From the NCBI RefSeq assembly GCF_008831285.2, contig NC_045146.1, positions 4,056,001 to 4,120,000 on the forward strand: a stretch of 64,000 nt of DNA, written 5' to 3'. The translations under genes and the position numbers were made by a program. Below are positions 15,701-63,950 of this stretch, one piece after another. The notes below the pieces were generated by a model. It was not told where the DNA came from. It ran no database searches and saw only the letters and a list, made by a program, of their open reading frames with translations. The DNA comes from Nymphaea colorata. Lineage: Eukaryota; Streptophyta; Magnoliopsida; Nymphaeales; Nymphaeaceae. How positions within the stretch are numbered: the stretch's first letter is position 1; each line of letters starts with the position of its first letter.

Positions 15701-18700
15701 AAACGCCTACATCCTCAAGCATTCTGAAAATGGTCACACATCTTTGCACATCCTATCTCTGTCTGCATTCACACCCATGTGACCAATATTTGAGTCTCGT
15801 CATGCTTCCAAAACTATGTAACATGGATGCAACTAAGGAGGTCCCGCGCCCACATTGACACAACACAAGTGCAGGTGCAGCACCAGACCCAATCAATGCC
15901 CGTCAAGTGTTGTCGGCCATGCTGGTCTATAATCATCCACATTTAGACACGCACATTGAAACGAGTTGAGTGCAGTCAACCAATGCCAAGGACCAACTTC
16001 ATCCTTTTTAAGTCCTTAATAATTAAAAAGTATTAAGAAAGGGGTTTAGGGCTCAATCAACCCCCCCCCCCCCCCAAAAAAAAAAAAAGAAAACTGTTTG
16101 AGCCTGCATAGTGCACAGTCTCCTTTCTCCCAGCAACCGAGTGCACAGTCTCCTTTCTCCCAGCAACCGACTATCTCCTCTCTGGTGTGCATCTCCTCCC
16201 CATTGCAACAGGCAATCTCCCTTTCAGTGACATGCCTTTTTTTTGTCCTTTTCTGACATTCTTGCTGGAGCAAGAAGCATGTAGCTGATGTCCTATCCCC
16301 CTCCACCAAGATTTCTTTCGCTTTCTGATGACCCTTCTTCTCTCTAGTTATGTGCTTTCCTCCTTTCTTTCCCTCTGGTGGTGCTCCATAATTTGATGGT
16401 TTTACAATTTTTTTTTATCTGTGCCTGTGTATATGTTTTTTCTGTTGCATTGCTGTTTATTTCTGTTTCAGTATGTTTGGTTTTTTATTCACATCCTAGA
16501 TTCATGGACTGTTTATATATACAGTCTTTTTAGTAGATACATATGCTTTTTTGTATATGTGTTTGCTGTTTTTATATATGGTTACACAGGTGAGGTAACT
16601 TAATCTAATTTCTGAAGGACTGTTGCGCTTCTATGTTTGCTGTTGTCTGTTATTCATTACATGACCGTTTTCTGAAACATGACTGTTTTCAGTTATATAT
16701 TATTTGTCGTTTTACTCTTATATATATATATATATGTATGTATGTATGTATGTAACCAGGTGAGGTAACTTAACCCAATTTCTGAAGGACTGTTACGCTT
16801 CTATGTTTGCTGTTGTCTGTTATTCGTTACATGACCGTTTTCTGAAATATGAGTGTTTTCATTTGTACATTATTGTCGTTTCACTATTCTATATATATAT
16901 ATATATATGCACTAATGTTGTTTATACAGTTATAACTTACCATACTGTTATATATATGTTGTGTATAACCTCTAATATATATGTCAGCACTAAATAAATG
17001 CCACTTGTCGTACTCTGACAAATGTCTGAAGCTGATAAACAAAGCATATATATATACATATATATATATGCTTTGTTTATCAGCTTCAAACATTTTCCAG
17101 AGTATGACAACTGATAAGGGGCATTGCTTTCTTATATATCCAATGTTGTTACATATGCTGCTTACGTGATATGTTAACTCGAATAGCCTGTTAATTTGTT
17201 TTATTTGGTCGAATTATTCTATCAATGATCAGAAATTTAGACAATTTTGTATTGCATACATACATACATATATATACATGTACATACATACATACATATA
17301 TATAGATATACACACACACACACACACACCCTCAATGCACCTGCGCCCAAATTTTCTTAAAATTCACCACACCTGCACCCAAGTTTTCCTGAAATTTGAT
17401 GAACCTGCATCCTGCACCTGTATGGAATAATCCCAAAACCTTATTTTTGGAAAGAAATTTTAGATGTTAGAACAGCTTTGATTTTGATTTCCTAATCTAT
17501 CAAAGTGTTTTCTTCTTGTCATGATTGTCAGGTTTAGAAGATGAGATCAAAATCTGCAAACCAAGAGAAGAAGAATACCGAGGAACAGGGCTTCAGCCTG
17601 TCACAATTTCCAATATGGACTGCATCCTATTATCCTTCATATATGGAACTTTCAACATTTTCAATGTCCTGCAGTACAAAAGAATAATGCACAAATGTGC
17701 CTATATATACACACCCCATACAAATGAGATGATAATACACTTTCGATCTAGATCAAATCTGAAACTGATCCAATCCATCATCAAAACACCTTATTATCCT
17801 CCATCCATATTGTTGAAATACAGACAACTTGTCCTCTAAAAACTAAAATTTGCTTTCGTCAATTCTTTTATAAAGCGGCCTACCACCCGAGTTTTCAATG
17901 AAATGATCTCCAATTGATCTTCAATATTCTTTCTAATGAAGTGCTAGCCTATCTCAACTATAATAAATAGGATCAAAATAATATCTGATGGCACTCCGAT
18001 TATCACAAATAAAAGAGATTTTGAAACTGGCTTCTCCAATTTGATTTAATAGATGTCCAGTCAGTCTCAATGGTAATCGATATTCAACTTCCAAATTTGA
18101 TTTGGCTACCTTTTTTCTTTTCTAATGCTCGACAACAACAGGTTTCCGTTAACATATGTGCTCCAAAACAGATCTCCTTTCATCAAGATCTCTTGCCCAA
18201 TACACAACATATAAATAACAATTTCATGCATACCTTTATTCCTCTAATTCTTCTTGTTGACGGGTTTTGTTGTTCGGGTCCGGATCCGTACCCGATCCGG
18301 TTTGTCCTAATTAGGACTACTTATACTTCTGTAAACCCTAATCTTTGAGTTAATGAAGTGTTGAAGAGAGAGAGTGTCTGGAGGCTAGTGGGCACCAGAC
18401 CTCCTCACCCGTGGTTTTTCTTCCCTCGAGTCGAGGGTTTTCCACGTTACATCCGTGTGCTTTCTTCTTCTCTCGTGCACATTTTGTTTCTACATGGTAT
18501 CAGAGCCAGGTTGGACTTGGAGAAAACAAAATCTGTTTTTTTGTTCTATGGTTGTGAAGTTCCAACCCTGACTGCCGCCGCCGCTACCACCGTCGCCGTC
18601 GCTACCACCACCGCCGCCGCTGCCCTTGCTGCGCCGCCGCTGCCCTTGCTGCGCCGCCGCTGCCCTTGCTGCGCCGCCGCTGCCCTGGCCGTGACCGTGA

Positions 18701-21700
18701 CCACCGCCGCTGCCCTTGCTGCCCCGCCGTGGCTGTGACCGCTGCTGCGTCGCTGGTGTCGTGACTGTCGACGCCAACGTCTCTGCTGACGCCTCCGCCG
18801 CCGCGGACGTCCGACGTCGTCGCCTCTTCTCGGCGCGCGCTGCCAAGCGCGGCCCTCTGCTTCCGCCGCGTCCTGCTGCTTCCGCAGCTCCCGCCACTTC
18901 CGCCGTTGATCCCCGACTGCGTCATCTCACCTCTTCTCTCGGTTGCTGCTGTGTGTGTTCTTTGGCAGCCACTTCTACCTCGTGATCATGGCTGACTCGT
19001 CTTCTTCTTCAGTCAACACTACTCTGCCTGATGTTGTGTCTGCGCGGACTGATCATGTACCGGTTCAGGTTACCACCATTCAACTTACCAAGGAGAACTA
19101 TTCCCGATGGTCTGCTGCGATTACCATGGGGATTGCTGGGCGAGGACGCATTGCCTATGTGAATGGGAGAAAGGTTGAACCTGCTGCAGATAGTCTGGCT
19201 TGGGATACATGGTTTCTTGAAGACAACCAGGTCAAAACCTGGATTGTCAATTCAGTGTCCCCGGATATCCAACCCCTCATTCTTCGTAAGAAGACTGCAA
19301 GGGATATGTGGATTATTTTGGAGCAGATGTATGGCCAAAAGAAAAGAAAAGTTCGTGTGTATCAACTTATGAAGGATGTGTATTCCCTGCGACAAGGTGC
19401 TCTCTCGGTTGCAGACTTTTATGCAGCATTAAAATCTAAGTGGGAGGACCTTGACTATCACTCTGATATTCCATGGAGGTGTCCTCACGACCAGATGCAG
19501 TACATGACTGATAAATGGGAAAACAGGGTATTCCTTTTCTTATCCGGACTGAATGATGACTTTGAAAATATAAGGGGTCAGATTCTTAACTCTGACGAAT
19601 CATTTAGTATTGAAGATGTCTATTCCCGTGTTGAAGCTGAAGAACAGAGAAGGCTGCTCTCTAGTGGACGAAAGGGGGAAGAACAGTCTGCCTATGTTAG
19701 CCGTGCCCCTGTTGGAACTCCTCGTTCTTCCCGAAAATGTACTCATTGCAAAAAACTTGGTCATACTAGGGATTTTTGTTGGGACCTGTATCCAGAGAAG
19801 AAGGATAATAGGGGGAGGTCTTCGAGTGGGAAGAAGCCTGTATCGTCTGCAACAAGTCTGAGTGATGGGAAAGGTTCTATTTCTGCAGAGCAGATTCGTG
19901 AGCTACGAGCATATTTGAGCAAGATTGATGTTGGTCAGGCAGATACACCAGATGAGGTGAAGATCAATCAGGCATTGGCTGTTTCAGGGGGAGAAGGTAC
20001 TTCTTCTATGGGTGAATGGATTGTTGACAGCGGTGCCACTCATCACATGACTGGCAACCCCAAGCTTTTCCATGACTACAAGCTATCCTCGGGAAAGGAA
20101 CGTGTGTCCCTTGCCGATGGTTCCTTTACTTCAGTGGCAGGGAAAGGGAGTCTTTCCTTGTTAAATAATTTTTTAGTTCATGATGCCTTACATGTTCCTC
20201 ATCTTCCCTTAAATTTGTTATCTGTTAGTAAGATTACCAAGGAACTGAAGTGTGAGCTTATATTTTCTGAAAAACGTTGTGTTTTGCAGGACTTGGTGAC
20301 AGGGAAGAGGATTGGGATTGGTTTGGTGTCTGATGGGCTGTATCGGCTTCCTATACGCGTTGTCACAGCTCTTATGTCAGCAGTCTGCAGAACAGAGAAG
20401 AAGGAGGAAGAGTGTCGTCAGTTATTTTTGTTTTGGCATGAACGCCTTGGTCATCTCCCATTTGGGATTTTGCAACATTTGTTCCCTGAACTATGTTCTA
20501 GTTTAAACATTTCCATGTTATCATGTGATGTGTGTCAGTTTGCGAAGCATGTTAGAGCTTCTTATCCAATTTCAAATAGTCGTTCTAATAAAGCTTTCTC
20601 CTTGGTTCATTCTGATGTGTGGGGGCCTTCGGGCATTCATTCTCGTGGTGGTTTTCAATACTTTATAACCTTTATAGATGATTATTCAAGATGTACCTTT
20701 GTGTATTTGTTGAAAGATCGTAGTGAGGTGCCTCACATTATTGAAACTTTCATCCTCCTAGTGGAAAACCAATATGGACATTCTGTCAAGACTTTTCGGT
20801 CTGATAATGCTCGTGAATATCTGTGTCTCACTGTTGAAGAATTCTTTCGAAAGAGGGGGATTGTTCATGAGACATCCTGTAGTTATACCCCCCCTCAAAA
20901 TGGGGTTGCTGAGAGGAAAAATCGTCAGTTGCTCAATGTCACCCGAGCCATACTGTTCCAAAGACATCTCCCAAAATACTATTGGGGTGATGCAATCCTT
21001 ACTAGTGTCTACTTGATTAATCGCATGCCCACTCGTGTGCTAAAGGGTCGTACTCCATACTCTATGCTTCCAGGGAGTAGTCAACCTTTTCATCTTCCTC
21101 CTCGAGTCTTTGGATGTGTGTGTTTCATACATAACCACAGCCCCAATGTAAAAAAACTTGATCCCAAATCTATTAAGGGCATCTTTCTTGGGTATTCTTC
21201 CACTCAAAAAGGTTATAAATGTCTAGATCCTACCACTGGTCGTCTTCACATTACCAAAGATGTCACATTCTTGGAACATGTTTCCTATTTTGGTGAGAAT
21301 TCTCTTCAGGGGGAGAAATTGATGTCTAAGGAAGAGTATTCTCCCACACAGGAAATTCAGTTTACAGACTTTATGGATTACAGGCGTGAAGAGAATCCTG
21401 TTGCCAAGGTGCTTGGCAAAGATGAAGATGGCAAAGATGAAGAGGGGACGACTACTGATGTACATGAACAGGAGAAGGAGGGAGAGCATCCTTTGGTGAC
21501 AGAACAAGAGGGTAATCGTATGTTTGGACAGGTGTATTCCAGGAGAAGAGCTTGTACTGACAAGGTGATTGATGATGAGGAGGTTACACCGAATCCCAAT
21601 CCTACTTCTTCCTTGGATGATCCAAGTCGTGTTCAGAAGCAAGATGTTGGAAAAGAAAAGGAGGATCTTCCTATTGCCTTGAGAAAGGGGGTCAGGTCAT

Positions 21701-24700
21701 GTACCCAGCACCCTATTGGTAACTTCGTATCTTACTCTAGATTGAGCACTGACTATAAATGTTTTGTATCCTCCTTGGCTGTGGTTGTGATTCCCAGGAA
21801 TGCTACAGAGGCTCAGGGTGACACTAAGTGGTCTCATGCAATGAAAGAAGAGATGGAAGCTTTAGACAGAAATCAGACATGGGAGGTGGTTGATATTCCT
21901 GAAGCAGCCCACTTGGTTGGGTCGAAGTGGGTCTACACTGTTAAGTACAAACCAGATGGTAGCATTGAAAGGTACAAAGCACGATTGGTGGCCAAGGGGT
22001 TCAGTCAGAAATATGGGATCGACTACTTAGAGACGTTTGGTCCTGTTGCAAAGATGAAGACTGTTAGAGTTATTATTTCATTGGCGGTGCTGAAGGGTTG
22101 GGAGATGTGCCAACTTGATGTAAAAAATGCCTTTCTCAATGGAGATCTCGAAGAGGAAGTGTACATGTGCATGCCACCAGGTTTTGAGAAGCCTGGAAAA
22201 TGTTGTAAATTGAAGAAAGCTTTGTATGGGCTGAAACAGTCTCCCCGAGCATGGTTTGAACGGCTCAGACTTGTTATGAAGAAACATGGCTACAAACAAG
22301 GAAATGGAGATCATACCCTGTTTGTAAAGAGAAGAGAGAGTAAAGTTACTCTACTATTGGTTTATGTTGATGATATGATTGTTACAGGTGATGATAAGGA
22401 AGAGATAGCAAGATTAAAGGGTTTACTATCTACTGAATTCGATCTAAAAGATCTTGGTAAGCTGAAGTATTTTCTGGGTATTGAAATTGCTAGATCAGGT
22501 ACAACTCTTGTACTTAGTCAAAGGAAGTATACCCTGGATCTACTAAAGGAGACAGGAAAACTGGGATGCAGACCAGCCTCTACTCCTATAGATGCTGGGC
22601 ATAAACTTGGTAGCAAAGATGGAGAACTGTTGGGTGAAGAAGCTAAAGGGAGATATCAACGTCTAGTTGGCAAACTGATTTATCTCACTCTGACTAGACC
22701 TGATATCACATTTGCTGTAAATGTGATGAGCCAGTTCATGCATGCACCTACAGATATGCACTTGAAGGCTGTAGATAGAATTTTGTGCTACTTGAAGAAG
22801 AATCCCGGAAAGGGACTTCTATATGTGCAACAAAGATCTATTGAAGTTGAAGGGTATTCTGATGCAGACTGGGCAGGCTGTGTTGACACCAGAAGATCTA
22901 CTTCAGGATACTGCGTCTACTTGGGGGGAAATTTGGTTGTTTGGAGAAGCAAGAGACAAGATGTGTGTTCCCGCTCGAGTGCAGAGGCTGAATATAGGGC
23001 TGTGGCTACTGGGGTATCAGAATTGTTATGGCTGAAGATCTTACTGACAGATATTGGAATAGAGATTGAAGGGCCTATGAGGATGTATTGTGATAATAAG
23101 TCTGCAATTAACTTGGCTAACAACCCGGTTCTTCATGATCGAACAAAGCATGTGGAGATCGACCGTCACTTCATCAGAGAAAGAATTGATGCTAAGGAAT
23201 TAACGCTACCTTACATGAAGTCTGAAGACCAAACTGTTGATGTCCTAACCAAGGCCTTAAGTGTAACTCCATTTGAGAGAAATGTATCCAAGTTGGGCAT
23301 GTTTGATATGTATGCCCAACTTGAGGGGGAGTGTTGACGGGTTTTGTTGTTCGGGTCCGGATCCGTACCCGATCCGGTTTGTCCTAATTAGGACTACTTA
23401 TACTTCTGTAAACCCTAATCTTTGAGTTAATGAAGTGTTGAAGAGAGAGAGTGTCTGGAGGCTAGTGGGCACCAGACCTCCTCACCCGTGGTTTTTCTTC
23501 CCTCGAGTCGAGGGTTTTCCACGTTACATCCGTGTGCTTTCTTCTTCTCTCGTGCACATTTTGTTTCTACACTTCTTATACAGGATCCTTGTCTCCAATT
23601 ATACCATTTAGATACCTCAGCATTTTGTTCACAGCATCTATATGTCCTGTCTGTGGTTCATGCATGAATTATGATGATTTATTGTCAAGGCAAGTACAAG
23701 TAAGAAACAGCTATATTTTTTATATATTGTGGGGTCACAACACAAGTCTCCATCTTGAGAACTAAGTTTTTTGTGTAAGACACTTAATGTAGGCAATAGT
23801 TACAAAAATTGCTGATTTTTCCAAAACAAGTAAGAAAACAATGTAAAAAATTTAAAAAAAAAAAGCAGGAAGAATCACAATATTTTGGAAATATCATGCT
23901 TTTATTACACTTTTATCATATTTTTTACTGTTTTTTCTGTTTTATCAAGAAAATGTTTTCAATATGTTTTAAATGTGTGTTTTTTTTTAATATTTCAATA
24001 AGTCTTTCGCATTTTGATTAATTGTATTGATTTTTATAACACGTTCTGCTTTATTGCTTTCTTCTTGAATCACTGACAGAATGATATCGTGATAGCTTAG
24101 TACTTGAGAAAGGAAGAATCTCTTGACTTGAAGAAAACAGCATTCTTTTGAAGTTAATAACAAACCCAAACCCAACCTTGCTTTGGTACCACATCAAATT
24201 TAGAAGAACCAAAATTTGTCAAAAGGTGAAGAAAACATCGAAATGGGGGTTAGCCTGCCACATGACATGTTATCCTTCGTTATACATGACAGTTACAACA
24301 TTTTCAATGGACAGTGGGCAAAAATAATATACAAAATACCACTATAAAAAAAAGGCTCACACAGATTAATGGATACCACAATTTGGATGTGAATCATATC
24401 TGAAAGTGATCCAGTCCATCATCATCACACCTTAGTAATTACAACTCTAAAGAAATCATTGAGTCACTAAATGCCGGGCATTTTTCTGATTGACCAAAGT
24501 TTTGAAGGAATAACAAGTTAACAAGTCCATTAGGCTTCTTATAACAATATCCTTTTTGGATTAAATACCAAGTTCATAAAGTTAATTTAAGTCCATGTTT
24601 TCTCCATGAGGCTTCTTAAAGTGTTCAGGTTATCAGGGTGAAATGCAGCCTCAATTCGTAGTTCTGCCACACGGCATAAGGCTAAGATTGGTCCTAGGAA

Positions 24701-27700
24701 ACCCCTCCCAAACCCTCAAAGTAGAATTGGCATGGCCATTAGTGGTCAGAATGATTCCATCATGAACAAATTACTGCTTACTTATAGCCTGATTGATCTT
24801 GTCATACAAACATTGTAGTAATGCTCCAAGGTTATGTTATATTAAGAAGAGTAAAGAACCCAAACAAAGCGTATTTCCTTTGACATTCTCAAATTGCAAC
24901 AGAAATGATGAATCATTGAATGGAAAGGAAAAAAACTAAACAAGTACATTCTATGTTGTATAGACATTTAGGAGTTACAGTGCAGAAAGCAAGGAGACTT
25001 TATGATCTCAGTAAAAGTATTATGATGCCAGTGAAAGTATCATACTCTTTCATGCGATAAGAAACTACCCCAAGTTCGTTGAATACAAGGGGATCTGAAG
25101 GACATAAAGCCTTTGCCTGCATAAAAAACTTAACCAGAAAAAGAACATGTGAACTGGTTGCACTATAAGCCAAACACAAGAACCATGATGAAAATTGAGT
25201 TACGAGAGCGAAATGAAAAAAGGATAAGGCAGTCATCATACATGGTTTTAACTTTTAAGTAACAAATGCATGCTAAAAATTTTGAGGAGAATCCAATCAC
25301 AAAACGATCTTTCCATGAGCTTAAGAAAGTTGAGAAATACTAGCAGAACAATATTACTGTTGTCTGAAATTAGTAAGAAAGGAAACGCAATAACAATCAC
25401 AATGCAGCTTGTTAGCTCATAAGCATTTCCTTGTGTGTTGTTAGCAGTTGTAAAAATATTTTGGAGCAGAAGAGAAGATTGTGTTAAGTGTGCTGAACAG
25501 AAACAAGCAAACATAAAGCCATGCCACTTTGGAATAGAAGAGCTACGAAAACCAAAAGTATATGTGGAACACCAGGCATCTTCAATTATTAACTGCAAAT
25601 GCACATTAAGGCTTACAAGAGGATAAAATAAAGTTGATACCTGTTCAGCAAGTTTAAAGCAATGAATACGCATATATTCCATCCCGAAGTATAGATTAGG
25701 CAAATGACATCTGTAATGGGAGTCCTCATTAGCACATAACTTCTTACTTTCTAATGAAACAGAAACTCTCAGTGCAACAGCACAATTAAACTGAACAAGG
25801 ATTCGCATTAATGTTAGTAAGACCATTAAGGAATATGTTGGCAAGCAATTAAAATGGGCAACCATGTGAGGCAAATCATTCAGCAGTATTGCATTGTAAA
25901 GGTTTTAACCTGATTTTAAAATTAAAATATTTTTTTCTCATGCCTAACAAGATATGGCAAGCCCACATACCTGACATTTCTAATAATTCTTCAAATACCA
26001 ATTGATAAGTGACCACATCAGTTCACAAGAACTCACATAAAGCTTCATATTGATTTAGCAAGGAAAAGGAGAATGCTCATATGAACAAAGCTCAAAGAAC
26101 ATAAAGAATCAGTTTCAAAACATGACAAAAAAAACTAAACCATTTTCCACCAGTATCCACTCTAAAATTAAAAGAAACACATATTTGATGTGGAATACAT
26201 CAAGGACATGAAAGAAAAAAATCATATAGACCAAATATCAGAGGCCAAATTGCTAATTACCCAGGAAATAGACGTGCTGCAGTTCGAAATGCAGCCATTG
26301 CATGGTCACCCTCTTCTTTTGCAGCATGAGCATTTCCATAACATATCCAAGCTGCAGCAAATGTTCCATCCAAACTTGTTGCTTTACTGTGAATAGATTA
26401 AATGGTCAATGAAGTGATACCAAATCAACAAAACAGCAGCAGAAGGGAGGCAACAATAAAAAAGGAAGTTGCACAAAATAAAAAGCCTTAATGAAAATAT
26501 ATGATAGTTTCAAAACCCATGCAAAAGTTCATCATCAAGGAGACAGACGAAATCAGGAAAAAAAAATCAGCAGAAGCTGCCACCCTTTTCCTTTTCCAAT
26601 GGAAAGAGCACAAAATATTTTCAAGGTTGCAAGTAGAATGAAAGTTGATCTCTCTGGATATTAACCACATTTCATCTACCTCGGATGAAGAAGCAGGAGG
26701 AAGGAGACTAATGATAGGAATTAGGGAGAGATGATGGATCTGGCATGTGAAGTAAGGGAAAAATGAAGGGAACAAGAGGGAATTACAGAGAAGATGTGTC
26801 AAGCAGGAAAAGTTGGCCAAGAAAATGAATGGCATTTGGACAGAATGAAGGAAAAAGACACACCAAAGTTTGAAGAAAATAGGAGAATTCAAGAAAATGG
26901 GTTCTTTGGATGAAATCAAATGAGGAAAATGGAAGGAAGACCAAAAACCAATGGAGGTAGGGAGAGAGCAGAGATTGTGTAAAAAACCCCATTCAGAGGA
27001 ATTACTCAATTGAGCAAAACATCAAAAACTGAGATAGAGCTGAATCCTGAATGCAAAGTGAGAACCTCAATGAGACAAATTTCCTGTTCAAGATCTGACA
27101 TAATGATCCAGTGCAAGAGGCAACGCATATCCATAGCTGTGGGAGGACCCTTGCTTAAAAAGCTATTTGCTTATAGCAGCATTGGCCCTTAAAAAGCTAT
27201 TTGCTTATAGTTATAGCAGTATTTCCCTAGGACCAATGAGAGGAGAGCAACTAGAGGAGTACATCTGAAGTATCCCAGATTGCATTAGATTAGGCTACCC
27301 ATGTACCCATTCCATGTGAATACTAGGATGCTATCCCATATTATATTGGGACTTTGTGCAGCCATACCACAATCACAAAGCAATGCATTGCAGGTTGTCC
27401 ACATCCAATCTTACTCCATGAATCCTCTCCTTACACTGGTAAATGCATGTAGCTTTCCTACAATTACAAAGCAACCTATTCCAGGCAGTGAACATCAATG
27501 TCACCTGGGTGCGTTTCCCAGGAGCTCGCACCCGCACCGACGCGTTGCAGGTGCGGGTGCGCTCCAGGTGCGCACCCAATCCGCACCCGATGATGAGGCG
27601 CACCGAAACCGCACCCAGGGGAGTTGGATCAAGTTCTGAGTCGAAACCAAATCCAAACCAAGTTCATCTGCGTGTATGGTTTGGATCTGGATCTGATTTC

Positions 27701-30700
27701 GGGATAAAACCAGATTAAAAATCCACAAAATCAAATCCCCGTCAGCCGTTGCATCTAATTTAATACATTTATAGATATATTATATGTTCTCTTTTCTCTT
27801 TCAAAAAAAACGATACAGGACTAAAGAATGGTGGCTTTCATAAAACGATCTGTTTGCCTTTTTTTCAAACATTTCTTTTTTTATTTTTTCCCATTATCAT
27901 AAAAATGTATAATTTTAATTGTGTTATTCAATTTCTACGAAAAATTAATAATAATAATAATATTAATATTAATAAAATATCTTCACCGCACCGCCGCACC
28001 TAATTTTTTTGAGATGTGCCGCACCGGCACCGGCACCCGCACCCCGCATTCAGGTGACATAGGTGAACATCTACTCTTATTCCTTGCAAAGACTAATTGT
28101 TGTACTTAACACATTGCCACAGAAAACGTGTCTTATTCAAAAAAAAATGCGTATAGTACGCGAAAAATAAGCCAGCCATATAAAACATGAAAAAAACGCG
28201 TCTTTTAAAAAAAAATCGAAAAAATATAAAACATTAAGAAAACGCATATTATACGCATTTTTTTATATTTTTTATTATTTTTTATTTTTTATCATTTTCA
28301 GGATTTATTAAATGTTTTAAATTTTTAAAAAATTTGCCGAGATATTACCGAGATATACAACTTTGCCGTATTATACCCGAGAAAATCCTTATCGTATAAT
28401 ACTCATACACAATATATGTGACAATGACTTAACATATTATATAACGCTTTGTATAATGTAAAGTAACTAATGACTAATAGGCTAAGTCACATGGGTGTGT
28501 GGTGCAAATGCGGGTGCAGGATATGGCAAGTTCAAAAAAAAAAAAAGGGTGCGAGTGTGGCAAGGGCATGTAGATACATGCAATCACGCATGCATATATA
28601 TATATATATATATATACATATATATATACATATATTATATATATAATTTGTTATACAAGTAATTCTATTTGTCTATATATTTCAATTAATTTTTACCAAG
28701 GTTACCTTAATCACATACAAAATTCAAAGTTTTAATAAATAAAATAATAAAAGGACGAGAGGTCTAGTTGTCCTCCTCAAAGGAGGATAGTCAACAATCT
28801 TAGTCCTTTAAAAAAGATGGCCAGCCTTGTAGACGTGAATAAAAAGTGTTAATTGTAGACCAATAAAACTTGATGTCCTTAAAAAAAAAACTTCAAGTTT
28901 TTGATCCTTTGAAAACTTGTGGCAACCCGTGTTTGTGCAGGTCGAATCAATTCAGCCCCATTTGTGAATTTTCTCATCAAGTTCAAGACATAAGCATGAT
29001 TATAAATAAACTTTGTGATTTCTTGGCATCTTTGAACTGTCCACTTCATATCATCTATTTCACCAAGATCCTGAAGCATTAGATTTAAATAGTGAACAAC
29101 ACATGGGCTCCAATAAAATGTCCTATATCGTGCTGCTAACATTTCACCTGCAGCTTTATAATTTGTTGCATTATCAATGATAAATTGCAAAACAGTCTCA
29201 AGTTCAACTTCTTGTATAACTTTATCAAAAATCTCAGACAAAATATCAGTAATCTTAAGAGTATCAGACAAATCAATAGATTTTAAGAACATTGTACCTA
29301 AGGGGCAATATACAAGGAAGTTTAACAATGTTCTGTTCTTAAAATCCGTCCACCCATCTGCCATTACACTGCATCATGTGTCTTTCCAGCTCAATTTCAG
29401 TTCATTGCAATATGTCTTGACATCTCTAACCACATTAATAAGAATTTTACCTCGCAATTTATGGTAAGAGGGCATTTTATACCCTCGGCCTACAGAAGCG
29501 ATCGCATCTGCTATATGATGAAAATGAATAGAGTTTGCTGCAGTAAAGGGAATGGATGCATCATAAAACCACCTCCCTATGATATCATCTGCTGCGGCAA
29601 CAATATCCTTTGAACACATGGCTGTACAAATCTCAGGCTGAGCACCTGCAGCAGTTTAAGTGGGAAAAAAGTTCTTGACCAAACCAGATTCAATACTCGA
29701 CCTCATAGTAGGTACTTTACCACCACTAGTTCCAATAGTACAACCATGACTCTTGCCACGTTCTCGTGAAATTGCACTTGCACCTCTTCTCTTTCTGGTT
29801 GTACCTGAAGAACCACCTCTATGCATGATGTCTTTCCCTTTATCTGTTCCCAAACTCAATGTTGTAAAAGGTGTATGTAACATGTATCGATCGGGCCAAC
29901 CTATACATTGTACCGTAACATATCGTATAAACGTAGCGTAGCGTGTCGTAAATTAATTTTTTAATTCATAAAAAATTTAAAAAAAATAGAAAAATTAAAA
30001 AAAATGAGTAAAATCAGGAGAAGCAAAGAAAGTTTCAGAAAAAATGTGTGTGTGTGTGTGTATATATACATATATATATATATATTAAAAAAAACTCATC
30101 ATATCATTCATAAGTCATAATATATTAACAACACATTTAGAAATTAGAAATAAGAAATTCATAATAACATAATAAGTGTTTATCACAACTTTGATGTTTA
30201 AAACTTTAAACAACTTTAATGTTTAAACTTTAAAGTGTTTTAGATTACATTACAAGTTCACAACATATAATATGTTATAATTATCATCACTCGAGGTCTC
30301 ATCGTCCCCATGGGGATGAGTTCTCCCCTAGATAAATGATTTATCACATAAATGGGAAATTTTTATAGAAAAGCTGGTAAAACTTCCCCCTCTCACAACT
30401 TTTAGACATGTTTAGAAAGATGAAGCGAGAGATTCTTTTGTAAAAAATACAAAAATCATTTTATCCCTGTACCATATGACACAGGGGTGTATCGTTTGTA
30501 TCGTATAGTACAGGTTATATGCCTACGACACAAGTGTATCATGTATCATAAGCCTATTGTATAGGTTCTTCAAACCTATATGATATGTATCGCACGATAC
30601 ATACTTGTATCGTGCGATACGATAACACTGCCCAAACTGACACCAACATCTTCTTGTTCAAGCTCAACATCTTCACATTTGCTTCATTCCTCTTCATATG

Positions 30701-33700
30701 GGTCCCCATATCCTACATCTGCCTCATGCATTTCCTTTTCAATTCTATTCGCTTTCACGGCACTAATAACCTCCAAACATTGGTGCTTGACATAGGGTGG
30801 CAATGGGTTCTCTTGGGAGTCAGTGCATTGAACCGCATCATTGTGTCTACTATCTATATGGTGTTTAAAGCAAGAGATCTCACCTGATATGATTTGCTTA
30901 TAAAAATTACACGTACCTTTTAACCTATCTTTGGGATTCACCCTTGTACACCACTGCCATGCAGGGTCCGACATTATATTTTTACAAAACAAGTAAAAAC
31001 CTACGATTAACTGTAGGAAATAAGAGAAATGAATGATTCAGTGGTGAAAATGAATAATTTTTACTGTCTTGGTGTTAGAAATCAAAAAACCCTCTTTCTC
31101 CAAGCTTCCCACTGTTCCCACTACGAGAAAGCTTCTTCACCAGCTAGTAGGTTGTCCCAAATCAATGAATCCTTAGAGATTTTTGATGAAAATGGGCAAA
31201 ATCTCTCCCTCCCACGTCTCTTGGAGTCGTTAGAAACAAGAAGAGAAAGAGAGACGAATGTTTAAACTTTAAAACTGTTGACGTGTTTTAATGTACGGGT
31301 CTGGGTCTAGACCCGGTCCAGTGTGTGCTCCTGTTTAGGCATGTTGAGACTCTACTTGTATCTTGGTAACCCTAATTTTTGGGAGTGAATGAAATCTTAA
31401 GAGAGAGAGAGTCTGGTTGCTAGTGTGCACCAGTTCTTCCTCATCTGTGGTTTTTTCCCTCTTATTGAGGGTTTTTCCACGTTACATCGTGTTCATCGTA
31501 TTCTTTTTCCTATTTTTCGTGTTTCTACATGGTATCAGAGCCAACGAGTTTGGGAATTTTCTTCGCGGTCGTGAAGTTCTGGCCCTGACCTTCCCATCAC
31601 TCGCTGCTCTTGTTCCGCCGCTGACGTTGCCGCCGCCACTACCACCGTCGCCCGGCTGCATCGGTTGAGATCGTTTCCCTCTCCAGACCGACGTCGGAGA
31701 TTGCTGTTGCCCAAAGCTGCCCTCTGCTCCTCCACCTGGTTCTGAGTTTCTTGTTTGTGATCGTATTGGATCACCGTTTGAGTGGTGATCGTCTGCCGCC
31801 GTGAAGTTCCGGTGGACACCGTCGACTCTTGTCGGTTTGTTGTGCGAGCTCCTTCACCATCGACTTGTGGATGACCTACCAGCGGATTTGATCGAAGGAG
31901 AACCGATTTGAGGGCTGTTTGAAGACGATCGTGCCATATTCTGTATACTCAGTTTTAACAGGTTTCACTAAGCTTGTTTTTGTCCGAGCTTCAATCGAGG
32001 GCTCAATCGGCTATAACTTTCGGGGGTGTTGACTCTGATCGCTTCCCAACAAACCAATCTGTCGAAGGGAAGTGGAATCGTGTCAATTGGGGCAGTATTG
32101 AGTGAGATTCGAGCTCAATAAGGTTGATCAGACACTGTTCTGCTTGACCGCCAACCAGTCCCTGTTTCCGGTGACTTTTCCGGCGATCAAACCATTGGAT
32201 TTTGATGATTCCGGTGCCATTCAATTCTCAACATCCAGGTGATCCTCTCCACCAAGTTTAACGTCGATCGGACCAGAGATGGCGTTTCTGGAGGCGACGA
32301 ATGGAATCTGGCGAAAATCGACGGCGTCTTCCTGAAGCAGGCTACAGGCAACCCGCGACTGCAAGGCTCAACGTCCTAAGTGTAGACTCCTCGGATTCAG
32401 CCCAAATTTGGAGCGTCCACTCCTTGGCTCGTGCTCTTGCGGTGGTCCAAATTTCAGAATTTTTGGAGGTGTCTACGATTTTATATGATTTTTCAAGTGA
32501 AGCCCTCTCCGTCAGGCCTGAAGCTGAGTTGCGTATGAGGACTTCTCCCAACGGTCCCAGTGCTCTCAGGCCTTGGATCATCAGCTACGTCATCTGGCTG
32601 TCATCCCAAGCGTCTGCAGCCTCTCTCATTCTGCGCCACCAGCATCGTTCAGGAAGAAATTTGGGTGTTCTATCGACGTGATGGCGGATTCTCGTATGGG
32701 CGAGTGGATCATCGACAGTGGTGCTACTCACCACATGACCGGCGATCCTAAGGTCTTTCATGGGTATAAGTTTTCGTCTGGAAAGGAACGTGTTTCTCTT
32801 GCCAATGGTTCATCTATCTCTGTGGCTGGAAAAGGGAGTCTCTCACTTTTAAACAAGTTCTTAGTCCACAATGCTCTACATGTTCCCCATCTTCCCTTGA
32901 ACCTCTTGTCGGTTAGCAAGATCACGAAAGAGTTGAATTGCGAACTTATCTTTTCTGCTGATCGCTGTGTTATGCAGGACTTGGTGACAGAGAAGAGGAT
33001 TGGGATTGGTCTGGCTTCTGACGGGTTATATCGTTTACTTATGTGTATTGCTCAGGCTCTTATGACGACAGTTAGCCAAGCAACGAAGAACAGAGATGAC
33101 TCCCTTCAGTGGATTCTCCGGCGGCATGAGTGCCTTGGACACCTGCCTTTTGGACTTCTTAGACAGTTGTTTCATGATTTGTGTTCCAGGTTAGACATGA
33201 CCATGGTGTCCTGTGATGTCTGTCACCTGGCCAAACATGTTAGAGCTTCATACCCTTTGTCTAGCCATCGGTCTAATGAGGTATTTGCCATGATTCATTC
33301 TGATGTGTGGGGGCCTTCAGGGATTCCTTCTTGTCATGGTTTTCAGTATTTTATCACCTTGATGATTGTTCTTGACGATTGTCTACTTGTTGAAAGTCCG
33401 TAGTGAAGTTCCTACTGTCATAGAGACTTTCATTGCTCATGTAGAAACTCAATATGGAGCATCTGTTAAGACCTTTCGATCTGACAATGCTCGTGAGTAT
33501 ATGTGTCAGTCTGTTGATAGCTTCTTTCAAAAAAAGGGAATTGTTCATGAGACTTCCTGTAGTTATACTCCTCCTCAAAATGGAGTTGTTGAACGAAAGA
33601 ATCGTCAGTTATTGAATATGACTTGGGCTCTTCTTTTTCAACGTCATGTTCCAAAAAGGTATTGGGGGGATGCTGTGTTGACCAGTGCGTATCTTATAAA

Positions 33701-36700
33701 TCGTTTGCCTAGTCATGTGTTGAATGGGCAGACACCTTACTCTATGTTACCGGGGAGTCATGAACCTTTCTCTCTTTCACCCAGAGTTTTTGGTTGTGTT
33801 TGCTTTATTCACAATCATAGCCCGCACATTAAAAAACTTGATCCAAGGTCTATTAAGGGCATATTTCTAGGTTATTCTCCCACTCAAAAAGGGTACAAGT
33901 GTCGGGACCCTTCCACTGGTCATGCCTATGTTACCAAAAATGTCACTTTCCTTGAACATGCTTCCTATTTTGGTGAGAATCCTCTTCAAGGGGAGAACTC
34001 TATGTCAAAGGAAGAGTATTCTCAATATTCTCCAAGTCAGGAAATTCAGTTTACAGATTTTTTGGACTACAGGCGTGAATCTGTTGGTCCTTCTATTGAG
34101 GTGCTTGAACAGGAGAAAAATGGAGAGTGTTCTACTGGCGCAGAAGAGGAATGCAATCGTCTGTTTGGGCAAGTTTACTATAGGCGAAGAGTTTGTACCA
34201 ATGTTATAAAAGGCGTAGCGTATCGCGTATCGTTCGGGCCAACCTATATGCCGTATCGTAACGTATCGCAAACATAGCGTAGCGTATCGTAAAATTAATT
34301 TTTTAATTTTAAAAAATATTTAAAAATCATAAAAAATAGAGAAAAATCTGAAAAAAATGAACAAAAAATCAGAAATTAAGAAAAATGTATTCAAATATAA
34401 AAAAGATCATCATACATAAGGAACATTCATGTGTATCAACGACACATTCAAAAATAAGAAATCAAATCTTCAAGAATAACATATAAGCATCCATCACGAT
34501 TTTAAACTTGAAAATTTTATAGAATCTTAGGACTTAGAGTCTTAGGACTTGGAGTTTTAGGACTTAGATTACATCACAATTTTATAAGTTCAAAACATAT
34601 AGTTATCATCTTTCCTGATTCAACGATAATATCTCCCAAATTGATGAATCATTGGTTATTTTTTATGAAAATGGGCAAAATCTCTCCCTCCTACGTCTAT
34701 TGGAGTCTTTAAATACAAGAAGAGAGAGGGGGAGGAGTGTTTAAACTTTTAAAAAATAAAGAAATATGTGTTTTCTCCCGTATCGTACGATACGGGGGTG
34801 TATCGCCCGTATCGTACGATACGGCCCCCGTATTGCACGATACGGGCGATATGCGTACGATACGAACGCGTATCGTGTTTCAAACATGTATCATATAGGT
34901 TTTCTTGACCTATACGATACGTATCGTACCATACGCGTCTGTATCGTACGATACAGATAACATTGGTCTGTACAGATGAGATGACAGGTGGTGAGAATTC
35001 TACTCCCAATCCAGTTAGTCCTTCCCTAGATGACCCAAGTCGTGCTCAGAAACAACCTGTTGAAGAAGAGAGTCAAACTATTGCTGCAAGTGAAGAGCTT
35101 CCCATCGCGCTGCGAAAGGGTGTCAGGTCATGTACTCAACATCCTATTGGTAACTTTGTTTCATATTCTAGACTGAGCAAGGACTACAAATGTTTTGTAT
35201 CTTCTCTTTCTTTGGCTATGATTCCCAAGAATGTTGCTGAGGCTCAGAGTGATCCCAAGTGGATTTATGCAATGCAAGAAGAGATGGAAGCCCTGAGAAG
35301 AAACATGACATGGGAAGTTGTAAAGATTCCTGAGGCAGCTCACTTGGTTGGATCTAAGTGGGTCTACACCATCAAGTACAAACCAGATGGAAGTGTTGAA
35401 AGATACAAAGTTCGTCTTGTGGCCAAGGGGTTTAGTCAGAAATATGGGATTGAGTACTTGGAGACATTTTCTCCTGTTGCGAAGATGAAGACTGTTAGAG
35501 TCATTATCTCCTTAGCTGTGATGAAGGAGTGGAAGATATACCAACTTGATGTCAAGAACGCTTTTCTCAATGGAGACCTTGAAGAGGAAGTATATATGTG
35601 TATGCCTCCAGGATATGAGGAACCTGGAAAATGTTGCAAGCTAAGGAAAGCTTTATATGGGCTCAAGCAATCTCCTCGAGCATGGTTTGAATGACTTAGA
35701 CTTGTCATGAGACAATGTGGATACCATCAAGGGAATGGAGATCATACACTCTTTGTGAAGAAAAATGAGCATAAGGTTACTATTTTGTTGGTATATGTTG
35801 ATGATATGATTGTTACAGGTGATGATGAAGATGAAATAATTAAGTTAAAGAAACTGTTGGCGATCGAGTTTGATCTCAAGGACCTTGGTAAGTTGAAATA
35901 TTTCCTTGGCATTGAAATTGTTAAGTCTGGTACTAGCCTCGTGCTAAATCAATGGAAGTACACTCTAGATTTGTTAAAGGAGACCGGGAAACTGGGGTGT
36001 AGACCAGCTTCTACTCCTCTAGATGCTAGCCATAAGCTAAGTCTTAGAGATGGGGAGCCTCTCTGTGAAGAGGCCAAAAGAAGATATCAATGTCTTGTAG
36101 GGAAGTTGATTTATCTTACTCTCACTAGACCTGATATTACCTTTGCTGTGAATGTGATGAGTCAGTTCATGCATGCTCCCACGGATAATCACTTGAAGGC
36201 TGTCGACAGAATCTTATGCTACTTGAAGAGGAATCCTGGCAAAGGTCTCCTGTATGTTAAGCAAGACGCTCTTGGGATTGAAGGTTACTCATATGCAGAC
36301 TGGGCAGGCTGTATTGACACTAGGAGGTCCACCTCTGGCTATTGTATTTATTTGGGAGGGAATCTCATAGTGTAGAGAAATAAGAGGCAAGACGTTTGTT
36401 CTCGTTCTAGTGCTGAAGCAGAATACAGAGTTGTTGCTATGGGAGTTTCTGAGCTTTTGTGGCTGAAAGTATTGTTGACTGATATTGGTATAAAAGTTGA
36501 AGAACCAATGAAGATGTATTGTGACAACAAGTCAGCAATCAACTTGGCCAACAACCTTATGCTTCATGATAGAACAAAGCATGTTGAGATTGACCGGCAT
36601 TTCATTCGAGAAAGAATTGATGCTAAAGAACGTGTACTTCCTTATATGAGATCTGAAGACCAAACTGCTGATGTCCTGATCAAAGCCTTGTCTTCAACTT

Positions 36701-39700
36701 CATTTGAGAGAAATGTATCCAAGTTGGGCATGTTTGATATGTATGCCCAACTTGAGGGGAAGTGTTGACGTGTTTTAATGTACGGGTCTGGGTCTGGACC
36801 CGGTCCAGTGTGTGCTCCTGTTTAAGCCTGTTGAGACTCTACTTGTATCTTGGTAACCCTAATTTTTGGGAGTGAATGAAATCTTAAGAGAGAGAGTCTT
36901 GTTGCTAGTGTGCATCAGTTCCTCCTCATCTGTGGTTTTTTCCCTCTTGTTGAGGGTTTTTCCACGTTACATCGTGTTCATCGTATTGATTTTCCTATTT
37001 TTCGTGTTTCTACAAAAACATAACGCAATCATACGATACGGGATACGCTTACAATACACGAACATATCGTGTATCGTAAGCGTACCATATAGGTTTTCTA
37101 AACCTATACGATACGTATCATACGATATGCATACATATCGTATGATACGTGTGCGTATCATACGATATGCATTACATTACACAGGAGTCATCAATTCACT
37201 GAATCGAATGTAAATAAAATGAATGTAAATGAAGTGAATGTGACCATTAAGTGTATTAATTGTGGTCACTGAGTGGTCCTTGCATGTTGTGGAATATGTG
37301 AGGGACTACCATGACAAGTTATGTGACTGCATGTGCTTATCATGTTATCATAGTAATATGTTGTTATATATTAGACTCTAGATTTGAGTCTTTACCTTAG
37401 AGGGTTAGGGATCTGTCTGGTTTGTCGTCATACTGCAAAAGCTAAGCCTTCTATTATTAATCTTTTTTAGGTTTTGGCGAACTCATGACAGCAGATTGAT
37501 CAGATGGCTCCGCTCACATACTATTGGGAAGATTTTGGGTTTATAGTCATGTCAGCGCTTTACGTTTTGGCTTCATTGATGTCTTGTTTTTGTTAGACAT
37601 CGATGTTTTGGTTCTGGGGCATTTTTGTCGTGTGTTATTGATAAATGTAAAATCATCTTGTATGAACTGATTTTGTTACATAATGGAATGTTTGTCTCAT
37701 TGTCATTTTGATTTGCATAGCTCCTTTCTAATTGTTGTGTCATCGCACCTCGACGTGTTATATTAAAAAAAAAAATTGGGGGTAAAAAGCTATGTCACAT
37801 GGGTGCAGGGTGAGGGTGCTGGTGCAGGTGCCGGTGCAGGATGCGGCAAGTTTCAAAAATAATTGGGTGCAGGTGTGACGAGAGCATATAAATATATATA
37901 TGTATACATATATTATATACATATATATGTTATTTTATTTGTTATATAAATAATTTTATTTGTCTATTTTTTTAAACTTTTTTTATCAAGGTTACCTTGA
38001 ATCAATATATCAATGAAAACAAAACTTGGCCAAAACATTTTCAGGAACAGCCAAAACTCATTTGACACCGTGTCGGGCTGCACCCGCACCAATGCGGGTG
38101 TGGGTGCGCCAACTATTTGGTGCACCCATGCAACTTAGGTAAAAAGGTCAAGGTGTGAATGTCGTGAATGTCTGTATGCAACTATGCATTACATACAGTC
38201 AATATTATATAATTTATATTATATAATATATCAAATTGTCATATATAAGTCAATATATATGTTAAAAAGTGTGGAAAACAACTAACTATATATTTAAGTT
38301 ATTAATTAAGTATTAAGTTATATAATAACTAATAGTGATATAATAACAACAATCCATAACAATCAATACTATATGATTTCTACTATACTTGTATGCTGAA
38401 GACAATATGTAATATATCATTTAAAATTTTAAAAACTGAAGATTGCAATAAGTTTCTAGACTCAAATGTTCACTTCAGTTCATAGATCATAACAAAAGGG
38501 GCCTAGTGATTAGTGATATGAAGAAGATGCAAGTCCATTGTCATTTGAAGCATCATCTAAATGAAGTTGACGCGAATGAAATATGGACTTTCTATTTGCT
38601 TAAACAACCATTTTCACTTTGAAGGAAGAGTGGAGGACAATCTCTTTGGCTTCCACAACTTATACATTAACAGCACACCAGCCAATAAGGCAAGATGGCA
38701 ATGGCTATAATGGGACTCCCCTAGTGTCTACAATGGGAAGGACGAGGAGAAGGAAAATGGAGGGGATGCGGAAAAAAAACAAAAAAGACGAGGAAGAAGA
38801 AGAAAATAGAAAAAGGAGGAGGGATACTAATCTAACTGAAGAGAGCCAGTGGCTGCATGGTGGGAGGAAAAAAGGAACTCATGAAGGCAGCGATAAGGTT
38901 TTCTATTTTTCTTTTATCCACATCCATGCATCCATGCCCAACACATAAAACTCCATATGAAGCTTTTGCTTGTTACATGCAGCACCAATAGAAAGTTAAA
39001 ATAATCCCCATTATTAGTATAAAAGATTTGCGTGCAATACTAAACTAAGTAAAAAGTTACAAACTCCTTTAACCAACAATATTATATGATTTATATTATA
39101 CTTGTCTGTTGAAGACAAAATGTAAAGTTTATATCATTTAAAATTCAATAAATTGAAAATGAATACGATAAGTTCCTAGACTCAAATGTTCATTTCAATT
39201 CATAAATCATAACAAAAGGGGCCTAGTCATCAGTCATATGAAGAAGAAGATGCAAGTTCATCATCATCTGAATCATTGTTTAAATGAAGTTGACGTGAAT
39301 GAATATGGGTCCTCTACTTGTTTAAATAACCATTTTCATGTTGAAGGAAGAATAGAAGATATCTCTTTGGCTTCCATAACTTAAAACATTAACATCACAC
39401 CAGTCTCCAACACTATTTAGCCCTTATTAAAGACTCTTCAAGAACCCCACTGAGATAGATGAGTATCTCTTCAACTTCCATGGACTAGCCGCAGACACAC
39501 CTAGTCCCATATAGGCGCAACTAGGTGTGAGCCAAGGCGCATGCCACTTTACAATAAAGAGTGCTGGACATATGCAATGAGTTGCACATAGGTGTTGCCT
39601 AACTGTGTGCCTATGCGGCACCTTAACAACATAGACCAACAGGTTGATCAAAAAATAGAAATGCAGTTGTCCTCACAAGCATCTTTACAACATGCAAAAA

Positions 39701-42700
39701 AAATCCAAAAGATTTGCAGAAGTTCCTCATAGGAGGGTCAGCTAAGCAAAGTGACATGACATCTACCCATGTACACAGAATGTTTCAAAAAATATGCAGG
39801 TTGAATTGCAAATTTCTAATAACTAAAACTTGGTCCAATATAAGCAAACAGAAGTCCCCAATCATTTAAATGAGAGTAACATACCAGAAATATCGACGTG
39901 ATTGATCAAACTTCTTGATACAGTAGTAGTAGCAACCAACTGCAAACCATGATAGTGCCCTAAAAGAGAAAAGGAAGAAAACCAAAAAGAAAAAAAACAC
40001 AAGATTTCAATTTCTGGAAAAACAAGTTTATTATTACCATTGTTCTCTAGTACAATAAAAGAGAACAGAAAGTCGAGCAAAGCCTTGTAAAAAATTCTCA
40101 CATATAAATTGGATAAAAATTACAGCGCACAGCACAAAACCCTACAACTTACATGATGTCACAACACACCAGAGGTAGAAAAGTTTACACATGAATGTGT
40201 GCTGGTAGCCTCGTATGCATCACACATGCATGCATGCTGGTATGCTTGCAACAAACTAGAGGTAAGAGTAGAAAAAACAAATATGTATAAGTTTGGCCAA
40301 TTTATAGTCCCAATCTCTACATGCCTGACACCTAAAAGAAAAAAGTCAATTCTGTAATACATATATATATATATACATATATATATATAAGTGAGTGAAT
40401 GGTGACTCTGGCTATCCAAAGTGACCCAGCTCACTCATGAGGGCTGTCGGATCCATCATGATGGATGCTTGGGAGAAACAAGGAGAAAAAAGTGTGAATT
40501 AGTTCTAGATGACGAAAATGTCTCACATTTTCTCCTTATTTCCTCTCAACTGTCTATGTAATGGACTGGACGTCCCTCAGGGCTGGACTCCTCCAACTGA
40601 AATGAGGAATTCAGCCCTTCACACACACGTCCCAATGTAGTGTATTAGGCCGCACATCTGATAACAGCTGCCCCATGCATATGCACACACAGAGGATCAG
40701 TATATATTTGTTGCACATGATACATTTATCAAATATTTTAATGGGATAAAAGAGAAGGCGCAGTGAAAAACAAAACTAAAGATAGGGATGCTGCCATAAC
40801 AAACGAAAAACTAGCTATGTAATAAAATTAAGGATGACATCAATCAAATAAGAGTTGTGTGTGTGTGTGTAACGCGCACAAACACACTTATTGATGCCAT
40901 GCATATATATAGGCCTGGAATACTCATATTGTGCAAAGTTACATACTTTCACAAGGTTAAAAAGTAATCCTTTCTGTAAGCCAAGCTACAGAAATTTTAA
41001 AATTCATGTACAAACTCGAGACATGAGCGGTGGATTCACAGCAAATGTAAACAGCCGCAGAATAATGTAAACAAACAAATGGAATAGTTCTCCAAATATA
41101 GGAGAAATACAAATGATAAAGACACTTAAACATGCATGCACATATATACATAAATACATACATGAACATATTCACTCTCCCTCTCTTTCTCTCTCACAAA
41201 TACACACGTGTATTTTGTGCATGCATGTATGCATAATGTTTCTTGGGATAATGTTGCAATATTTTTCATCCTACAACATTTTACAAATATTGAAGTATCT
41301 TGTTAATATATGGTCCAAAAGGCAAAAAAAGTAAAGGATATTTTCAAAAATACTAGAGATATGGGCAATCTGTGAGGAAGCTAGAGTTTCTTTTCTGCAC
41401 TGAAACTGCGAGGTGAGCTGAAGAATGAAAGGCTCAATATAATGACCACAATACCTTAACCAAGAAGTTATGCACAACATTTCCTAGAAGTCTGTTTCTC
41501 TCGATTTCATGAGAGTACATGTCTCCATTTTGTATCCCTTTACATTATGAAGGTACATTCCTTTCCTGCACTCCATGATTCAAATTGAAATTGTAGTAAA
41601 GAGTTGGTTAATTTTGTTCTCATAACAGGTTATATCTTAAAATTTCAGCACCATCAACACAATGCCTGTTTAGAAAATTTAGATAAACCACACAAACATT
41701 CATATTATGCAGAGTTGCAAGTGTGTGTCCATTTTCTTAATATAACTTAAGAATGCAGGTGATGTATAAGGAGCAAGTTTAAAAAGCAATCAAATTACTA
41801 GTTTTGAGTCTTTTGACCCAACATCATTCGCATTGATGATTGAAGAATCAGCAATGATAATGGTCAAACATGCCTGCTTTCTATGAAATATCACACCATG
41901 TACAGACATGATTTCGTACCCGTACTCACTTTTGAGGGTAATCTTTCACCAAATTGCATGCCATAATGTAAAGCTCATTAGACTTGCCAAGTTCCATTGC
42001 TGCTGCTAAATGTACTAAAGTACATTTAATATGAAAAGGATCCCTTTCAAGAAGCCTAAATGAGGACAGAGAGTCAATAGAATTAAAAATATAAAAAAGT
42101 CAACAAATATTCAGTGAAAAAAAAAGATTGAAAAAAATAGTTCTGTCCTGTCTTACATAGTGGTCATATCAAAACATTTCTGGTAGTCTCCACACTGATG
42201 ATAATAGTCAGCTTTGCAAGTTAAAAGGTCTGTATTATCTTTCAGGGTATGAGCAAAGGAGACATCCATGGAGCATGGATCATAGTGCTCTCTTTCAAGC
42301 TCTGCAAACTTCTCCTCAACAACATTTTCTTTCTCATACTACAAATCACAAAATATAACAAATTAAAAAGAGAATCAAGAAACACAGAAAACAAAAACGA
42401 GGCACACCATAAGATGCATCTAATTTTGATTTCCCATAATTTCTAACAATACCTTTTTAATTAAACAGGAATAAAAGGCAGACAACCAACCATCTCCAGG
42501 AGCAAATTGGAGAGTTGAAAGCAGAACTTTCTCTGAACAATGCCCAAAATCAGGTAAGTTATTGAGGCTTATGGTAAATTGAACCTCAAAAGGAACGCAA
42601 ACTATACAGCAAAAAAAGCGAAACTATTCATTCAAGAATGGAATTATGATTTTATGATTTTACCTTCATCACATGTAAGCATATGGTTATCTACCAAACA

Positions 42701-57940: not shown

Positions 57941-63950
<6,010 letters not shown>

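What the first reader, a model, noticed from the sequence alone, without database searches (positions are those of the whole stretch)
26387..39884. Nested transposons of several levels in one APC6 intron
Intron 9 (13.5 kb) holds a hAT transposase gene interrupted by a MITE (8-bp duplication CCCAAACT). Its upstream part is interrupted by a copia element (AAAAC duplication), which is interrupted by a second copy of the same MITE (8-bp duplication, 7/8). The duplications order the events: hAT first, then copia 2, then MITE copy B; MITE copy A also came after the hAT gene. APC6 still reads as a complete gene across it. The exact outer borders of the hAT element are not clear.
Basis: partly seen in the sequence, partly recalled or inferred. 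Interest (0 to 1): 0.7.

Follow-up and report, generated by a model that had tools for sequence, protein, structure and literature searches.

The report
Nested transposons in an APC6 intron
A 13.5-kb intron of a plant cell-division gene has been filled by transposons that jumped into one another, an ordinary kind of plant genome growth that leaves the gene itself readable.

Summary
APC6 (minus strand) reads as 16 exons, 540 aa; intron 9 is exactly 26387-39884. Inside lies a decayed hAT transposase gene (BED, DUF659), cut by MITE A (774 bp, TSD CCCAAACT) and, in its 5' terminal region, by a copia element (LTR K2P 0.037, TSD AAAAC). The copia is cut by MITE B (767 bp, TSD 7/8). The genome search answered twice, late. 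It shows MITE B only in this copia copy: 38 copia-side matches elsewhere all stop at the MITE border, and 11 of 11 fetched relatives are unoccupied there, 8 with GTCTGTAC. Two sister copies of MITE B elsewhere have perfect 8-bp duplications. Additions: MITEs A and B match the 5' end of the hAT they sit in, so they look like deletion derivatives of that family; the hAT right border is near 37179, its left end is lost; three further hAT-type MITEs flank it. Whether the hAT brought MITE A with it, and the full-length hAT parent, could not be tested. The genome (408 Mb, 14 large contigs) fits the water lily Nymphaea colorata. This is a fine example of known plant TE nesting, not a new kind.

The parts
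26387..39884 (-). APC6 intron 9, 13,498 bp, GT-AG, phase 2
   Evidence: exon joining; CDC16 match over residues 5-527 of 540, E 1.9e-112
39885..39959 (-). APC6 exon 9
26261..26386 (-). APC6 exon 10
27496..28062 (.). hAT-type MITE (M2a), 567 bp, TSD GTGAACAT on both sides, TIR CWATGTCACCTG
28112..28426 (.). hAT-type MITE (M3), 315 bp, TSD ACTTAACA on both sides, TIR CATTGYCACA
   Evidence: 39 other genome places at 77-84%, most matches beginning near its left border
28482..28744 (.). one end of an M2-type element, cut short; it abuts the hAT gene remnant
   Evidence: alignment to 37790-38024
28745..37179 (-). hAT1: decayed hAT element with its inserts; left end and last part of the transposase gene missing; right end near 37179
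28879..29655 (-). hAT transposase DUF659 part, with in-frame stops
   Evidence: E 4e-40; next piece E 0.001, below cut-off
30684..31037 (-). hAT transposase BED zinc finger part
   Evidence: E 1.5e-4
29849..30638 (.). MITE A (29857-30630, 774 bp) with duplication CCCAAACT, inside the hAT coding region
31271..37019 (+). copia 2 with AAAAC duplication; LTRs 31276-31529 and 36763-37014; antisense to APC6; no gag match; broken frames
34191..34973 (.). MITE B (34199-34965, 767 bp) with duplication GTTTGTAC/GTCTGTAC, between the integrase and reverse-transcriptase parts of copia 2
   Evidence: unoccupied in 11 of 11 fetched relatives
31136..31275 (-). 5' terminal region of hAT1, left of copia 2; matches MITE B 34619-34753
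   Evidence: 113 identities, 22 mismatches, 4 gap columns; z 33.5
37015..37179 (-). 5' terminal region of hAT1, right of copia 2; matches the right end of MITE B
   Evidence: (z 14.9)
37790..38138 (.). hAT-type MITE (M2b), 349 bp, TSD GTAAAAAG on both sides

Best explanation
APC6 intron 9 grew by successive transposon insertions. A BED/DUF659 hAT element lies in the intron (shown). Its coding region was cut by MITE A, and its 5' terminal region by a Ty1/copia element on the opposite strand (shown by duplications). That one copia copy was then cut between integrase and reverse transcriptase by MITE B (shown by duplication and unoccupied relatives). MITEs A and B are shortened relatives of the same hAT family, presumably moved by its transposase in trans (homology of the 5' end shown; trans-mobilisation inferred). 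A deletion removed the left end of the hAT together with part of an M2-type element (inferred). Three separate hAT-type MITEs inserted beside it (shown by duplications). APC6 most likely still splices exon 9 to exon 10, because every exon, frame and splice site is intact (inferred; no RNA).
For: Borders, duplications and LTRs. Coding pieces. MITE B in place: of 41 genome matches to the copia/MITE junction, only this locus crosses it; 38 copia-side matches (93-97%) end at query position 148-154 (border 149) and 2 MITE-side matches begin at 145 and 148. 11 of 11 fetched copia relatives have 0 bases between the flanks, and copia 1 in intron 12 also lacks the insert. The ancestral octamer GTCTGTAC (8 of 11) shows that the left duplicate changed later. 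Two sister copies of MITE B have perfect duplications CTCTGAAC and TTACCAAC. Frames on both sides of MITE A run into the duplicated octamer. Family link; the second hAT remnant (12950-13900) matches MITE B's right half (z 6.7) and hAT1's 5' flank (z 4.4; 56.9 against a shuffle maximum of 56.2), 0 of 300 shuffles each. APC6 intact.
Against: No second accession or species and no RNA. Genome searches for the hAT gene and for the hAT/MITE A junction did not complete, so no full-length parent is shown. The left end of hAT1 and its own target duplication were not found: no partner of CACAGGAG beyond chance (24 matches, 17.3 expected; 32, 36.3 expected). The left end of MITE B shows no match to 28422-28900 (297 of 300 shuffles reach it), that of MITE A only a weak one (17 of 300), so the family link rests on the 5' end. 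The hAT2 5' flank does not clearly match MITE A (12 of 300), nor its 3' part MITE B (26 of 300). No hAT gene was found within the 9 kb fetched around either MITE B sister. Only 40 of 1039 candidates were scored.
Confidence: 0.83

Rival explanations
1. Part of the nest arrived ready-made: the hAT already carried MITE A when it jumped into APC6, or copia 2 already carried MITE B.
For: A duplication orders the two elements, not the place. Copia 2 has no match to the first 326 residues (gag part) of copia 1 and has broken frames, so it may have moved in trans, as a copy with an insert could. The hAT/MITE A junction was not searched in the genome (tool unanswered).
Against: For MITE B: no other match crosses the junction, though such a copy would have scored highest, and 11 of 11 fetched relatives are unoccupied. 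For MITE A: nothing either way.
Confidence: 0.1
2. 31136-31275 plus 37015-37179 is a third, cut-short MITE copy (C) next to the hAT gene, not the hAT's own 5' end. The nest would then have one more level: MITE C, copia 2, MITE B.
For: The sequence matches MITE B closely. The left half of the MITE is absent here, so a fragment cannot be excluded.
Against: The second hAT remnant in intron 13 has a matching flank at the same place upstream of its BED part (0 of 300 shuffles, though 56.9 against a maximum of 56.2 for the hAT1 comparison).
Confidence: 0.15
3. Assembly join error inside the region.
For: The border 28744/28745, where an M2 end abuts the hAT gene, has no target duplication or other mark.
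Against: The junctions of copia 2, MITEs A and B and the three flanking MITEs carry duplications of the expected length (B 7/8). Exons 9 and 10 are in phase. If this is the N. colorata assembly, it rests on PacBio long reads (PMC7015852, passages).
Confidence: 0.03

Closest known systems
Nested transposable elements of plant genomes (LTR nesting; PMC6911290, abstract and outline seen)
   Same: Elements inserted in elements; that study reports 1491 nested LTR pairs in 12 plant genomes and insertion into copies of the same family.
   Different: Here DNA transposons and a retrotransposon alternate, in an intron.
Genes with heterochromatic, TE-filled introns in rice (PMC7145194, passages seen)
   Same: TE-bearing introns in genes; over 10% of rice genes have introns with repressive heterochromatin.
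   Different: No chromatin or expression data here.
hAT-derived MITEs, e.g. Mar in Drosophila (PMC3517528, listing and abstract start seen)
   Same: Short non-coding hAT relatives with terminal inverted repeats.
   Different: Plant family; MITEs lie inside their own probable parent element and inside a copia within it.

Membership tests
hAT superfamily (hAT1) | BED zinc finger and hAT transposase core | tested here: met
   zf-BED E 1.5e-4 (22.2 bits, cut-off 20.6); DUF659 E 4e-40. That DUF659 marks hAT transposases is recalled.
hAT superfamily (hAT1) | C-terminal hAT dimerisation domain | tested here: not met
   Frames end after DUF659 at 28879. The missing end fits a deletion, so hAT1 is called a truncated hAT remnant.
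hAT superfamily (hAT1) | 8-bp target duplication around the whole element | tested here: inconclusive
   Right end near 37179; left end missing; no partner of CACAGGAG beyond chance
hAT-type MITE (A, B) | 8-bp target duplication | tested here: met
   A 8/8, B 7/8; two sister copies of B 8/8
hAT-type MITE (A, B) | terminal inverted repeats | tested here: met
   B CAATGTTAT 9/9 at both ends; A 7/9 (letters)
hAT-type MITE (A, B) | many copies in the genome | tested here: inconclusive
   Only two sister copies of B came up, as by-catch of a junction search; the search for the whole element did not complete
Ty1/copia (copia 2) | TG..CA long terminal repeats with 5-bp duplication | tested here: met
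   LTRs TGTTGACG..TTCTACA; AAAAC
Ty1/copia (copia 2) | integrase before reverse transcriptase; copia-type RVT_2 | tested here: met
   33366-34277: SH3_retrovirus E 2.7e-24, rve E 1.9e-4 (22.1 bits, below its cut-off 32.6); RVT_2 in 34909-35694 and 35695-36375
Ty1/copia (copia 2) | gag | tested here: not met
   No match to residues 1-326 of copia 1 at E 1e-3; a degraded member
APC6/CDC16 | TPR protein matching CDC16 over its length | tested here: met
   E 1.9e-112, residues 5-527 of 540 against CDC16 chain 5g04_J (human: recalled)

The most novel reading that the evidence does not exclude
The nest is a heterochromatic block that APC6 transcription must cross with an IBM2-like factor, so that loss of TE silencing would change the dose of a core cell-division gene; and the hAT MITEs return preferentially to copies of their own parent family.
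Probability: 0.06. Interest if true: 0.5.

Novelty: new member of a known kind. Interest (0 to 1): 0.22.

Why it matters
It is a clean, orderable example of intron growth by alternating DNA-transposon and retrotransposon insertions in a conserved gene, with the small elements sitting in their own probable parent. It could serve as a marker between plants and as a test case for transcription across TE-filled introns. It does not change general understanding.

Tried and rejected
A left end or target duplication for hAT1 was sought and not found. I tested whether 28422-28900 is the left end of the MITE family: MITE B no (297 of 300 shuffles reach the score), MITE A weak (17 of 300). The 325-bp repeat at 38357-38681/39070-39403 was tested as MITE left half or hAT2 3' part: of five alignments, four lie near or below the shuffle mean, and one (39050 copy against hAT2, 65.8; shuffle maximum 68.4) stays inside the shuffle range. 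Region 37179-37781 has no match in the window. Rfam at gathering scores: 0 matches in the window. For M3 copies fetched, a duplication scan found a TSD of 7/8 with a matching inverted repeat in 1 of 7 loci (L003), only a simple-repeat match in L005 and nothing in the other five. A 12-bp version of the scan gave 3 hits, one of them a simple repeat.

Ten paper searches: none of the listed titles is about transposons in an APC6 intron. One search (APC6, intron, transposon) listed 4 papers, seen as listing only. In PMC7015852 I saw passages; 'intron' did not occur in its main text.

The age in years is left open: K2P 0.037 gives about 1.4 million years at 1.3e-8 per site per year (rice rate, recalled) and more at slower rates.

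Full report
Where it is. The window is G000:C9:4056001-4120000 of a 407.8-Mb assembly in 783 contigs. [quoted passage not shown] PMC7015852, passages).

Gene context. APC6 lies on the minus strand. Sixteen exons join at 15 GT-AG introns into 1623 nt, 540 aa and a final stop. The product matches CDC16 over residues 5-527 (E 1.9e-112). Intron 9 is 13,498 bp and intron 12 is 10,443 bp; the other 13 are 94-2153 bp.

The nest. Copia 2 is on the plus strand, antisense to APC6. Its LTRs differ at 9 of 252 aligned sites (K2P 0.037) and AAAAC flanks it. Against the copia 1 protein it matches residues 327-598, 596-886 and 881-1475 in three frames, with two stops in the last piece and nothing for the first 326 residues. 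MITE B lies between the second and third pieces. MITE A lies in the hAT coding region; the frames on its two sides both run into the duplicated CCCAAACT. The hAT frame has in-frame stops and ends after DUF659.

MITE B went into this copia copy. A 281-base query across the left copia/MITE B junction gave 41 matches in the genome, 40 of 1039 candidates being scored. Only the window itself crosses the junction (border at query position 149). Thirty-eight matches cover the copia side at 93-97% and stop at position 148-154. Two cover the MITE side at 96-97% and start at 145 and 148. A copy carrying both would have scored highest. Eleven copia relatives (L010-L020) were read across the site: 11 of 11 have no base between the flanks, and the octamer is GTCTGTAC in 8, GTCTGTAT in 2 and GTCTATAC in 1. 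The left duplicate GTTTGTAC here thus carries the later change. Copia 1 in intron 12 also lacks the insert: 84 identities, 29 mismatches and 22 gap columns, 13 of them overhang. The two MITE-side matches are whole sister copies, about 94-97% identical in BLAST pieces, with perfect duplications CTCTGAAC and TTACCAAC; no hAT gene was found in either 9-kb stretch. The MITE B line was therefore mobile in fairly recent times (inference).

The family link. MITE B matches hAT1 on both sides of copia 2; z 33.5 and 14.9, 0 of 300 shuffles each. It matches 37131-37178 up to its second-last base, which puts the hAT right end near 37179. The flank upstream of the BED part in a second hAT remnant (intron 13, 12950-13900) matches MITE B's right half (z 6.7) and hAT1's 5' flank (z 4.4; 56.9 against a shuffle maximum of 56.2), 0 of 300 shuffles each. 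It does not clearly match MITE A (12 of 300), nor its 3' part MITE B's left half (26 of 300). The left half of the MITEs has no clear counterpart at hAT1 (MITE B 297 of 300, MITE A 17 of 300). That end of hAT1 appears to be lost, so the link rests on the 5' end. The genome search for a full-length parent did not complete.

Other elements. A strict scan (8-bp duplication, 10-bp inverted repeat, at most one mismatch) finds two places in the window, both in intron 9 (27496-28062, 28112-28426), against a mean of 0.13 (largest 1) in 30 controls. The second belongs to a repeat with at least 39 other genome places at 77-84%; most of these matches begin near its left border. Of seven fetched copies only one shows a duplication, 7/8. 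A looser scan adds MITE A, 37790-38138 and two probable chance hits: 6 against a mean of 1.0 and a largest of 4 in 40 controls. An end of an element like 37790-38138 lies at 28482-28744 and stops where the hAT remnant begins. About 74% of the intron is assigned to elements (9928 of 13,498 bp, with the hAT right end taken as 37178).

What the order proves. MITE B after copia 2, in this copy, is now well supported. Copia 2 after hAT1 follows from AAAAC inside the hAT end. MITE A after the hAT sequence is shown, but not where. K2P between MITEs A and B is 0.253 and between hAT1 and MITE B 0.17-0.18, all above the LTR divergence of 0.037.

Known context. Nesting is common in plant genomes (PMC6911290, abstract). 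[quoted passage not shown] This locus is a good example and not a new kind.

Noticed in passing
18255-23571: Copia 1 in APC6 intron 12: LTRs identical at 240 of 240 sites, CTTCT duplication on both sides, one open frame of 1475 aa with gag, integrase and reverse-transcriptase matches. A very young insertion, so probably variable among plants.
   Followed up: partly
17960-18199: Copia-like remnant on the minus strand beside copia 1: E 0.036 for the left flank alone, 1.0e-5 when the two flanks of copia 1 were set side by side with an N spacer. Copia 1 may sit in an older copia.
   Followed up: partly
12950-13900: Decayed second hAT remnant (BED homologue) in APC6 intron 13, next to an M2-like end at about 12606.
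   Followed up: partly
L021 4183-4908; L022 3673-4474: Sister copies of MITE B with perfect 8-bp duplications. L021's copy lies beside coding-looking sequence (resembling phosphoglucomutase, by eye, recalled), perhaps in an intron; a 25-bp piece like the MITE end lies 55 bases upstream.
   Followed up: partly
38357-38681 and 39070-39403: A 325-bp sequence repeated in direct orientation, 82% identical, in the right part of intron 9; origin unknown.
   Followed up: partly
37179-37781: About 600 bp between hAT1 and the M2b MITE, ending in an A-rich run; no match in the window; perhaps a retroelement fragment.
   Followed up: no
53677-54280: Copia remnant on the minus strand upstream of APC6.
   Followed up: no
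60151-60501: Exon of an MCM-type replication helicase gene on the minus strand (Pfam MCM E 1.7e-27).
   Followed up: no
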